From assembly GCF_013215705.1 (NCBI RefSeq), contig NZ_JABSQR010000006.1, positions 62,001 to 126,000 on the forward strand: DNA of 64,000 nucleotides, read 5' to 3'. Positions within the stretch are counted from its first letter, which is position 1. Every line of letters starts with the position of its first letter. The notes beneath the pieces were generated by a model. That model did no database searches. It was not told the origin of the DNA and worked only from the letters and a program-made list of their open reading frames with translations. Source of the stretch: Moritella sp. Lineage in GTDB: Bacteria > Pseudomonadota > Gammaproteobacteria > Enterobacterales > Moritellaceae. Positions 18,851-22,628 of the stretch are shown here, piece after piece. The position numbers and the translations under genes were made by a program.

Positions 18851-19113
18851 TATACCCAAGCTACGTCAAGATGCACAATCAGCAAACCGAATGAAGAGTA
18901 TATTCAAGGCATGAAGTCGAGGATTTAGTTATTCTAAATCAAGACTTCATAACGCCGAAGATGCCTTCATTCGTTTTGCCCTACGGGAGGCGAGCAGGAA
19001 TAACAGCACAGCGTTGCAATATTTGAAAATGGATAACCATTATCTACATATTGCGCCTTGTTCTGTTATCCCTGCTCGTCTCTGATATAGCATCTTGAAG
19101 TAACTTGGGTATA
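18851..19113. mobile_element. 263-bp nested palindromic element (MITE-like repeat)
   Basis: The ends are 24-bp inverted repeats (TATACCCAAG...TCAAGATGC), matching at 22 of 24 positions. Inside are two further long palindromes: one built on GCAAACCGAATGAAG near 18892 and its inverse near 18970, with inner GGATTTAG/CTAAATC arms. The other is built on GAGCAGGAATAACAG near 18993 and its inverse near 19070. There is no open frame. Similar TATACCCAAG-bounded repeats are, from memory, frequent in Vibrio/Photobacterium-type genomes. No second copy lies in this window. Confidence 0.7.
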
Positions 19114-19124
19114 TATAGGACTAA

Positions 19125-19742: not shown

Positions 19743-19880
19743 AATTAAACTTCCATAATTCTTAATGATAAACACAGTAACTGTGTTGCTTAAATAACTA
19801 GGTATGGGCGATTTGTATAAAAACAAGGGAGAACATAAATTTTTTCTACTGACTACGGCTTAATTGACATCAATTGATTA

Positions 19881-20339
19881 TTAATCTAAAAATTTCAGAG
19901 ATAAACATTCAAAAAATAGACTTCCCTCTTCTTGAAAAGTGTTATCGAAATATTTAATCAAACTTATTCTGGCTTGTTTTGGTAAAACCATTGGATCATA
20001 ACTTGTGTCACTCACAGCATGAAAAAATTCATCCGTCGCTTTAACCTTAATAGCGACTTGAAAACTGGTGATGAGATAAGCGGTTCCTCTAGACATAACA
20101 CCGTTCGTAAAAACCCAAAATTCATATTTTTCATTTTCACCAATGAGTGTCGATCCTTCTATATCTTTTTTTTGCCCGATCAATGACACATTACTGCTTG
20201 TTGAATAATGCTCAATGCCATCATAATTTGAAATATATACGCCACATTTTAGATCCAGCGGAGTGACTATCAGTGCTGCATAGCTTGGTTCAATATAAAA
20301 AGTGAGTATTAAAATAAAAGTGCTTATTATTTTAGACAT
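19881..20339 (-). CDS. Secreted or periplasmic protein of unknown function, cassette gene 3
   Basis: 152 residues with an N-terminal signal peptide (MSKIISTFILILTFYIEPSYA, cleavage likely after SYA). The mature part contains two cysteines that could form a disulphide and no recognised domain. Its ATG overlaps the stop of the 139-residue gene by 13 bp, with AGG six bases upstream, so it is translationally coupled. Base composition is AT-rich like its two partners and unlike fklB and nagK. The function is not recognised; an accessory immunity or periplasmic partner of the cassette is one possibility (inference). Confidence 0.78.
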   Translation of the reverse strand: MSKIISTFILILTFYIEPSYAALIVTPLDLKCGVYISNYDGIEHYSTSSNVSLIGQKKDIEGSTLIGENEKYEFWVFTNGVMSRGTAYLITSFQVAIKVKATDEFFHAVSDTSYDPMVLPKQARISLIKYFDNTFQEEGSLFFECLSLKFLD

Positions 20340-20731
20340 TCCACACCTGCTTTTAAGTAAACGTTAAAATCTATCATTCTCATTGATTTACTCATTGCTT
20401 CACAGTAAGTATATCCAGCATCCACAACCTTCGATTCTAACCAAAAATCAAACCAAAAATTAGTTACCAATAAACATAAAAAAATAAAAATAAAAGCGTA
20501 GTTAACATATCTTGTATTAAGATTATTTTTTTTAATACAACTAACACCATGAATGATTGGAATTATAATAGAGATAAAAAAGAATCCATAATTACTTTGA
20601 AGTGTAATATTATCAACAAGTTCGTAAACATTTTTAGTAATGTTTATATATTCAATGTAAACATAAATACAAGCTAAGAATGCGGCTAAATCAGCAATTA
20701 TCAAGACTATGTGATCCTTTATTTTTATCAT
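20327..20731 (-). CDS. Three-span membrane protein of unknown function (DUF1240-like), cassette gene 2
   Basis: 134 residues from the ATG at 20731 (a GTG at 20746 would give 139 and overlap the upstream gene). Three hydrophobic spans lie near residues 8-28, 45-62 and 79-97. A C-terminal segment with DAGYTYCEAMSKSM and a final cysteine follows, likely periplasmic. The layout and Cys-containing tail recall DUF1240 membrane proteins, which are small orphan membrane proteins of enterobacteria and relatives (memory-based, unsure). It lies between the putative pore-forming protein and the secreted protein, as an immunity protein would. Confidence 0.75.
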   Translation of the reverse strand: MIKIKDHIVLIIADLAAFLACIYVYIEYINITKNVYELVDNITLQSNYGFFFISIIIPIIHGVSCIKKNNLNTRYVNYAFIFIFLCLLVTNFWFDFWLESKVVDAGYTYCEAMSKSMRMIDFNVYLKAGVECLK

Positions 20732-20732
20732 T

Positions 20733-21506
20733 TTAGTTAAATCCACTCAATCCGAGTGGTAAACCATTGATAATTCTCCACTTCAATTCACGTTCAACTC
20801 GGTTAATTTCTCTTGAAAAATTACCAATAGTATTATCAACTGAATCATCTATAAATTTAATCAAAGCATCTGTAACGCCAAAATGATTATCAATAGCATC
20901 AAGCGTTACACTAACTAATAATCCAACTGCTATAGCGATAAGCAATGGACCAACAGCATAAGTTGCCGCAACACCAGAAGCAGAAACTAAACCAGCCAAA
21001 GCAACTGCAACACCAAGTTTAACTAGATCGGTTGCTGTAGAACCAATCAACCTTGACATCGATTGCTCATCACTCAAAATTACATTAATAATATTCATTG
21101 GTACAATCAGGTAAATAGTTAATCGAGTTCCTGATATTATTGAATTCCTAACGCCGACCTGTCCAATTGCCATATCTACAACTTTAACATTGGTAGATAA
21201 GTAGCGAGTAGCCGTAAAAATAGAGCGTACACCAGCATAACCTTTAAATATTACATATTGTTTAGCACCTACAGTTTTCAGTACCACTTTACCGGTTATA
21301 CCTAAATCGTTTATAACTTTCATCGCTGTAACCGAATCTAGGGCTGCAGCTGCAAAATTTGATACATATCTAACAGACGTCATGAGTTCCTGAATGGATT
21401 GGCCTGTTACTTTATGCCAAGCGTTAAGCAGCTGCTCTGTAGACAGTATGTTTATAGATTGGGTATTTTCATTTATTTTGGCTTTGATTATCTGAGCTTG
21501 TGACAT
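20733..21506 (-). CDS. Putative membrane-active (pore-forming-like) protein, cassette gene 1
   Basis: 257 residues from the ATG at 21506, five bases after AAGGG. No signal peptide. The N-terminal 90 residues are amphipathic. A block FKGYAGVRSIFTATRY near residue 90 precedes a hydrophobic span (TIYLIVPMNIINVIL). A long glycine/alanine-rich hydrophobic region then follows at about 155-205 (LVKLGVAVALAGLVSASGVA, then GPLLIAIAVGLLVSVTLDAI), ending in a charged helix. A cytoplasmic-start protein with a long hydrophobic hairpin resembles colicin-like or type VI membrane-permeabilising effectors. No enzymatic motif was seen. First gene of a coupled three-gene, AT-rich cassette. The function is not established. 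Confidence 0.75.
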   Translation of the reverse strand: MSQAQIIKAKINENTQSINILSTEQLLNAWHKVTGQSIQELMTSVRYVSNFAAAALDSVTAMKVINDLGITGKVVLKTVGAKQYVIFKGYAGVRSIFTATRYLSTNVKVVDMAIGQVGVRNSIISGTRLTIYLIVPMNIINVILSDEQSMSRLIGSTATDLVKLGVAVALAGLVSASGVAATYAVGPLLIAIAVGLLVSVTLDAIDNHFGVTDALIKFIDDSVDNTIGNFSREINRVERELKWRIINGLPLGLSGFN

Positions 21507-21623
21507 GTTCACCCTTGAAAAATAAGAGATAAATTAATATCTTAAATTTAAAGATAACACTGATGCGGGACTTCATTAATAGAAATTCAGTTAAACCATA
21601 CTAATTTCATACTATGCAACTAA

Positions 21624-21649
21624 ATAAAGGCCTGAAGAAGCGCCTTTAT
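21624..21649 (-). terminator. Possible terminator after nagK
   Basis: ATAAAGGC pairs with GCCTTTAT around a 10-nt loop, 46 bp past the nagK stop. The T-run after it on the minus strand is poor, so the call is tentative. Confidence 0.4.
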
Positions 21650-21695
21650 AGAAACCATTTACGCTCTAATCAGTTGGGGAAAACGTATAGAAAGA

Positions 21696-22628
21696 CTATT
21701 TATAATTCAACAGCGCTGCACCACGAACACCGCCTTCACCACCAAATTCGGCTTGCTTTAACTGCGGCAATTTCATGTTATCAAATACATAAGCCTTTAT
21801 CTTTTCAGGTAGTTGAGTATACAAGGCCTCAAAGCGCGCCAAGCCACCTCCGAACACCACCACATGGGGATCAAGGATCATAATCAAACTGCCTAGTGCA
21901 GCGGCTAAAATATCTAAAAATACCGTCACGGTTTTGACTGCTACGGCATCATTCGCTTCATATGCAGCAATAATATCCGGGCCTTTCAGCGCCTGTTCTT
22001 CGTTACATGAACCATCGATATGGATTTTGTAAAATTTATATAACGCAGCAAGTCCAGTGCCTGAACAATAAGTTTCTAAACAAGAATGCCCCCCACATCC
22101 ACAATGAGTCAATGGAAGCTCAGGATAACGTTGTAACATGGTGCCAGGAATAGCCATATGACCAAACTCACCTGCGCCAAAGTTATGCCCAGACAAAATG
22201 GTTTTATTTATGCAAATGGCACCACCTAAACCTGTGCCTAAAGTCACCGCGATAGCAATATCGGCGTCTTCCGCTGCACCCTTAAAACATTCTGATAGCG
22301 CAAAGCAGTTGGCATCATTCTGCACTTTTACGTCACGACTAATACGTTTCTGTAAATCAGTTTGTAAATTCTGGCCATGTAAACTGGGTAAATTAGGGCA
22401 AATGGTGGTATTAGTTTCTGGGTCCATCACCCCTGGATACCCGATACCAACCATGCCCTTACAACCAAACTCTTTATCGGCTTTAAAAATAAAGGTATCA
22501 AGTGCATCTAATAATTCTTCGTAATCTTCGGTAGGTGCGGGGATCCGCTCATTGAAAACACACTCAAGATCTGTGTTATATACCGAAAATTCTATCTTGG
22601 TACCGCCAATATCAAAACCGTAATACAT
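21696..22628 (-). CDS. nagK: N-acetyl-D-glucosamine kinase
   Basis: ROK-family sugar kinase of 310 residues (E. coli NagK 303) that phosphorylates GlcNAc from peptidoglycan or chitin recycling to GlcNAc-6-phosphate. The ATP loop is DIGGTKIEFSV. The zinc/ROK signature is HCGCGGHSCLETYCSGTGL near residue 178, preceded by GEFGHMAI. The start ATG has GGGGG upstream. A CRP-like site and an inverted repeat lie in the divergent promoter region. A related fructokinase or glucokinase activity cannot be excluded by sequence alone. Confidence 0.93.
   Translation of the reverse strand: MYYGFDIGGTKIEFSVYNTDLECVFNERIPAPTEDYEELLDALDTFIFKADKEFGCKGMVGIGYPGVMDPETNTTICPNLPSLHGQNLQTDLQKRISRDVKVQNDANCFALSECFKGAAEDADIAIAVTLGTGLGGAICINKTILSGHNFGAGEFGHMAIPGTMLQRYPELPLTHCGCGGHSCLETYCSGTGLAALYKFYKIHIDGSCNEEQALKGPDIIAAYEANDAVAVKTVTVFLDILAAALGSLIMILDPHVVVFGGGLARFEALYTQLPEKIKAYVFDNMKLPQLKQAEFGGEGGVRGAALLNYK

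What the first reader, a model, noticed from the sequence alone, without database searches (positions are those of the whole stretch)
19881..21506. AT-rich coupled three-gene cassette: candidate membrane-permeabilising effector with membrane and secreted partners
Between fklB and nagK lie three coupled genes of unknown function. The first encodes a 257-residue leaderless protein with a long Gly/Ala hydrophobic hairpin region, as in colicin-type pore formers and type VI membrane-permeabilising effectors. The second encodes a three-span, Cys-tailed membrane protein, and the third a secreted protein with two cysteines. Gene ends overlap or abut and base composition is visibly more AT-rich than both flanks, which suggests a transferred toxin/immunity-like unit. 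Homology was not checked, so the effector idea is inference.
Basis: partly seen in the sequence, partly recalled or inferred. Interest (0 to 1): 0.7.

Follow-up and report, generated by a model that had tools for sequence, protein, structure and literature searches.

The report
Type VI membrane-toxin cassette, extra secreted partner
Between two housekeeping genes this bacterium carries a small transferred cassette that very probably encodes a toxin injected into rival bacteria to breach their membranes, the matching membrane immunity protein, and a third secreted protein of a previously undescribed family that may be a second layer of protection.

Summary
Three coupled minus-strand genes (19881-21506) form an AT-rich insert (25-36% GC against 42% for neighbouring genes) between fklB and nagK; all 10 sampled congeners have an empty site there. 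Gene 1 (257 aa) is a standalone Tme-type (type VI membrane-disrupting effector) protein: it has the DxxK-plus-hydrophobic-helix signature, and relatives are fused to PAAR or lie inside T6SS clusters. Gene 2 (134 aa) is a divergent DUF1240-like Tmi immunity protein, matched by a held-out Tmi profile at E=5e-7. The host encodes a T6SS elsewhere. Tme/Tmi is a published family (Fridman 2020), so this part is a new member; I could not compare directly with Tme1. New is gene 3: a Sec-exported, two-cysteine, predicted all-beta protein of no known family. The same three-gene order, with the same 13-nt overlap, occurs in a MAG labelled Desulfobacterium. Another relative follows a degraded Tmi gene and a fourth is an orphan. 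This pattern (kept when the toxin is broken or lost) suggests a second, periplasmic immunity protein, but that is inference. No toxicity was tested; the gene-1 structure model was unusable.

The parts
20733..21506 (-). Gene 1: Tme-type T6SS membrane-disrupting effector, 257 aa, standalone (no N-terminal delivery domain)
   Evidence: Relatives in 34 of 395 order genomes; PAAR-fused or T6SS-embedded relatives; DxxK motif, D160/K163/D206
20327..20731 (-). Gene 2: divergent DUF1240-like Tmi immunity protein, 134 aa, three spans, GYxxC...C tail
   Evidence: Held-out Tmi profile E=5e-7; invariant Cys pair; 13 of 18 aligned partners match DUF1240
19881..20339 (-). Gene 3: Sec-exported two-Cys protein, 152 aa, new family; candidate second (periplasmic) immunity protein
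   Evidence: Relatives in L108, L134, L135; all-beta model pLDDT 68; no family match
19846..21690 (.). Approximate extent of the insertion between fklB and nagK
   Evidence: Alignments to 10 congeners stop at 19839-19847 and resume at 21688-21701, facing each other across a 40-60 bp spacer

Best explanation
The locus is a horizontally acquired effector-immunity island. [quoted passage not shown] After injection into a rival's periplasm its hydrophobic region would insert into the inner membrane, collapsing the membrane potential and making the membrane leaky without lysing the cell. Gene 2 is a DUF1240-like Tmi immunity protein that sits in the inner membrane and blocks the effector in the producer and its kin. 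Gene 3 is exported by Sec, folds as a small beta-rich domain probably closed by a disulfide, and most likely acts as a second immunity factor that meets incoming toxin in the periplasm. Shown here: the homologies, gene order, empty sites and a T6SS in the genome. Taken from the literature on Tme1/2: the membrane effect and its neutralisation by Tmi. Inferred: delivery by this host's T6SS (about 0.85 likely) and the gene-3 role (about 0.5 likely). The confidence below is for genes 1 and 2.
For: Relatives of gene 1 in 34 of 395 order genomes; PAAR fusion, location within T6SS clusters on plasmids and in congener G004; DxxK motif in gene 1 and in 36 of 42 relatives; Tmi profile built without the window hits gene 2 at E=5e-7; 13 of 18 partner proteins match DUF1240; T6SS core genes in the same genome; TssK in 29/34 Tme-positive against 144/361 Tme-negative genomes, p=2e-7; empty site in 10 of 10 congeners; the whole three-gene unit in L108; gene-3 relatives kept beside broken or absent effectors. 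Function of Tme/Tmi: PMC7046647.
Against: No direct comparison with Tme1/Tme2 was possible. Gene 2 alone reaches only E=0.61 against DUF1240, below the Pfam cut-off. The cassette lies far from the T6SS genes and gene 1 has no recognisable delivery domain. Five of 34 Tme-positive genomes lack a TssK hit. The role of gene 3 rests on four loci, one of them a broken copy in a MAG. The gene-1 structure model is unusable.
Confidence: 0.85

Rival explanations
1. Gene 3 is not immunity but an accessory secreted factor of the cassette, for example a periplasmic helper or modulator of gene 1, or a second small toxin with its own target.
For: Most Tme cassettes manage with Tmi alone, so a second immunity protein is not generally needed; no fold match shows a binding function.
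Against: A relative stands alone as an orphan (L134) and others persist beside broken or absent Tme (L108, L135), as expected for immunity rather than for a helper of the toxin. A Sec-exported toxin would be released in the producer's own periplasm.
Confidence: 0.35
2. Gene 1 is a membrane-active effector of a sister family that only resembles Tme, with an analogous but separate evolutionary origin or mode of action (for example an ion-selective pore like Ssp4 or Ssp6).
For: No direct comparison with Tme1 or Ssp4 was possible; Ssp4 is likewise reported within a three-gene insertion away from T6SS genes.
Against: The DxxK-helix-Asp signature and the DUF1240-like partner are the published marks of Tme; Sip4 is described as a four-span protein, gene 2 has three spans.
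Confidence: 0.1
3. The cassette is a decayed or neutral insertion with no working effector function in this host.
For: No T6SS gene beside it; very AT-rich; present in one of 11 sampled genomes of the genus at this site.
Against: All three frames are open and coupled, family-conserved residues are intact, and a patchy distribution is usual for effectors.
Confidence: 0.06
4. A colicin-type bacteriocin released by the cell rather than a T6SS effector.
For: A long hydrophobic Gly/Ala-rich region resembles that of pore-forming colicins in general terms.
Against: No Pfam match at E<=1, no receptor-binding or translocation region in 257 aa, no lysis gene; relatives carry T6SS delivery domains.
Confidence: 0.03

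Closest known systems
Tme1/Tmi1 and Tme2/Tmi2 of Vibrio parahaemolyticus and the Tme/Tmi family (Fridman et al. 2020, PMC7046647)
   Same: DxxK plus hydrophobic helix plus Asp signature; C-terminal-type domain; a DUF1240-like three-span partner directly downstream; T6SS in the genome; PAAR-fused relatives
   Different: Gene 1 is the bare domain without N-terminal extension, its Tmi is divergent, and a third secreted gene follows Tmi
Ssp4/Sip4 of Serratia marcescens (PMC12669606)
   Same: Membrane-targeting T6SS cargo effector encoded away from T6SS genes in a three-gene insertion between housekeeping genes
   Different: Sip4 is described as a four-span protein; Ssp4 does not permeabilise the membrane, unlike Tme; no sequence comparison was made here
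BPSL0067/STY0301 gene pairs
   Same: Small, apparently exported proteins in what look like effector-immunity loci; a relative of L008's secreted gene lies next to such a pair (L127)
   Different: Gene 3 itself matches neither family; its link to L008's secreted gene is unsupported

Membership tests
[quoted passage not shown]
   D160-L-V-K163, hydrophobic stretch, D206; motif found in 36 of 42 relatives
[quoted passage not shown]
   The published PSSM and Tme1 sequence were not on hand; only homologues found from the window were used
[quoted passage not shown]
   Met for the family and for this genome; gene 1 itself has no delivery domain and no T6SS neighbour, which the paper allows
[quoted passage not shown]
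   Needs the expression and competition assays
Tmi (DUF1240 or DUF1240-like immunity) | Encoded directly downstream of Tme, with three to six spans | tested here: met
   1 nt gap, three hydrophobic spans
Tmi (DUF1240 or DUF1240-like immunity) | Sequence link to DUF1240 | tested here: met
   Indirect: held-out profile of Tme partners hits gene 2 at E=5e-7 and 13 of 18 aligned partners match DUF1240; on its own gene 2 scores E=0.61, below the cut-off
Pore-forming colicins | Colicin pore-forming domain match and receptor/translocation regions | tested here: not met
   No Pfam match for gene 1 at E<=1; protein is 257 aa with the Tme domain filling it
Any known family, for gene 3 | Significant profile or fold match | tested here: not met
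   Pfam, NCBIfam, PADLOC; plasmids and phages; Foldseek against PDB best E=0.011 with TM 0.19 on a pLDDT-68 model

The most novel reading that the evidence does not exclude
Gene 3 founds a new family of Sec-exported, disulfide-closed periplasmic immunity proteins that act together with the membrane-embedded Tmi against one T6SS membrane-disrupting effector: a two-layer immunity in which the toxin is caught in the periplasm before it reaches the membrane. It would be one of the non-DUF1240 Tme immunity types that the 2020 paper expected but did not identify.
Probability: 0.45. Interest if true: 0.6.

Novelty: new variant of a known kind. Interest (0 to 1): 0.45.

Why it matters
Tme effectors are widespread, but the 2020 paper left open both their structure and how Tmi stops them. 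A naturally soluble periplasmic partner would be far easier to purify and study with the toxin than a three-span membrane protein, and would make the mechanism directly testable. It would also give a marker for orphan immunity in genomes that lack the toxin.

Tried and rejected
Pfam, NCBIfam and PADLOC on the three proteins gave nothing above threshold; the succinate dehydrogenase cytochrome b hit of gene 1 (E=0.006, far below its cut-off) is taken as a hydrophobicity match and was rejected, as were the PDB sequence hits at E about 0.5. AlphaFold of gene 1 with 10 sequences gave pLDDT 38.6 and was not used. Gene 3's fold search found no significant match. Homology between gene 3 and L008's secreted protein P0004 looked tempting (28% in a two-sequence alignment) but failed BLASTP (E=0.12) and hhalign (probability 1%), so it is not claimed. 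Gene 3 has no relative besides itself in 395 order genomes, nor in plasmids or phages. I saw no repeats or integrase at the insertion edges by inspection; the mechanism of insertion is unknown. Promoter and terminator scans were near chance level. The first named-genome scan with gene 1 alone found nothing because its patterns fell on non-conserved stretches.

Full report
WHAT IS THERE. Three minus-strand genes lie between fklB and nagK (nagK from 21696). Gene 1 is 20733-21506 (257 aa), gene 2 is 20327-20731 (134 aa from ATG) and gene 3 is 19881-20339 (152 aa). Genes 1 and 2 are separated by one base; genes 2 and 3 overlap by 13 bases. GC is 36.3, 25.4 and 32.7%, against 42.2 +/- 2.3% for 36 other coding ORFs in the window. 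In all 10 congeners sampled, the fklB and nagK sides face each other across a 40-60 bp spacer with nothing between them. The unit is therefore an insertion found only in this genome among those sampled.

GENE 1. A protein search found relatives in 6 of 59 related genomes (the own genome counted), and an alignment search found them in 34 of 395 genomes of the order, a patchy spread. Several relatives are longer, with the gene-1 region at the C-terminus: a 471-aa protein has a PAAR domain (E=8e-14). On plasmids, relatives lie inside T6SS clusters: a PAAR protein between TssA and TssF in Lelliottia, and a standalone form directly after TssH in Leisingera. In congener G004 the relative lies among genes that look like ClpV, TssF and TssG (identified from their sequences by inspection, not scanned). 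In the order sample TssK is found in 29 of 34 genomes with the domain and in 144 of 361 without it (Fisher p=2e-7; genomes are not phylogenetically independent). This matches the published Tme family (Fridman 2020, PMC7046647): a C-terminal domain with a near-invariant DxxK followed by a transmembrane helix flanked by Asp. Gene 1 has D160-L-V-K163, a hydrophobic stretch and D206; 36 of 42 relatives carry a DxxK pattern by a simple text search (a few of those matches may lie off the aligned position), and K163 is invariant in a ten-member alignment.

GENE 2. Almost every Tme relative examined is followed at once by a small protein with two or three hydrophobic spans ending in a Gly-Tyr-x-x-Cys ... 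Cys tail. A profile built from those partners, leaving the window and L008 out, hits gene 2 at E=5e-7, while the best ORF outside such pairs or arrays scores about 0.06. In an 18-member alignment both tail Cys are invariant and the Tyr nearly so. Thirteen of the 18 match Pfam DUF1240, best at 2.3e-38, though gene 2 alone reaches only 0.61. The 2020 paper names DUF1240 and DUF1240-like proteins as the main Tme immunity family, Tmi. Gene 2 is a divergent member.

THE HOST HAS A T6SS. Contig C22 of the same genome carries TssA, TssC, TssE, TssJ, TssK, TssL, TssM, FHA and VgrG by Pfam, plus a ClpV-type AAA+ ATPase, with TssB and Hcp. A second set of T6SS genes lies on C4. Delivery of gene 1 by either is inferred.

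GENE 3. It has a hydrophobic leader, two Cys (32, 145), no family match and no relative besides itself in 395 order genomes. A scan of named genomes found the full three-gene order in a MAG labelled Desulfobacterium sp. (L108): Tme 53-54% identical but frameshifted, Tmi open (29%, E=3e-25) and a gene-3 relative (39%, E=6e-26) with an in-frame stop near its end and the same 13-base overlap with Tmi. The taxonomic placement of one MAG contig may be wrong, and the breaks may be assembly errors. A class-level search found two more relatives in one genome (G446): one standing alone (L134, 38%, E=9e-34) and a diverged one directly after a degraded Tmi-like gene (L135). G446 has a T6SS and another Tme/Tmi pair; one of its contigs has the same length and ORFs as a contig titled uncultured Ectothiorhodospiraceae (L117 and L139), so it is probably that MAG. 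The model of gene 3 is all-beta at pLDDT 68, made from two sequences only, with no convincing PDB match.

HOW IT PROBABLY WORKS. From the Tme1/2 experiments: toxic only or mainly in the periplasm, dissipating the membrane potential and admitting propidium iodide without lysis, neutralised by the cognate Tmi. By homology gene 1 should do the same and gene 2 should protect. Gene 3's retention next to Tmi where the effector is broken or absent, its export signal and its paired Cys fit a periplasmic second immunity protein. This is inference: only four loci, one of them a broken copy. An accessory role is the main rival.

A CAUTION. L008, the nearest order-level relative of gene 1 (39-40%), has no Tmi in its cassette but an overlapping secreted two-Cys gene (P0004). 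A relative of P0004 sits beside BPSL0067- and STY0301-family genes (L127). This hints that secreted immunity may be used repeatedly, but P0004 and gene 3 could not be shown to be homologous.

NOVELTY. Tme/Tmi is known; this is a new, extension-free, standalone member with a divergent Tmi. The paper noted that some downstream genes are unrelated to DUF1240 and may be other immunity families. Gene 3 is a candidate of that sort, but as an addition to Tmi rather than a replacement. Hence: new variant of a known kind.

Noticed in passing
window 18851-19118: MITE-like repeat of about 265 bp downstream of fklB with 24-bp terminal inverted repeats (TATACCCAAG...), a very stable fold (z -13.7) and many near full-length copies in this genome and its congeners.
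   Followed up: partly
L069 (G175), L084, L094, L073, L085: Arrays of extra Tmi copies, and in L069 repeated partly broken Tme/Tmi units, in related genomes.
   Followed up: partly
G000 contig C4, 215212-215687: TssB of the second T6SS gene set is found in two overlapping pieces, perhaps a frameshift or a sequencing error.
   Followed up: no
L128 (G062) compared with L008 (G042): At the L008 cassette's site a congener has a sulfotransferase-like gene and only a 36-aa, 94% identical remnant of P0004: a turnover site for cassettes.
   Followed up: partly
L127:4043-5427 (G117): BPSL0067-family gene, STY0301-family gene and a P0004-like secreted gene in a row.
   Followed up: partly
L010:8872-10557 (G004) and L102:9016-13497 (G000): In the T6SS cluster a similar N-terminal module is fused to Tme in G004, but in G000 it belongs to a 313-aa gene followed by a 1174-aa gene that begins with a LysM-like stretch: an apparent effector-swap slot.
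   Followed up: no
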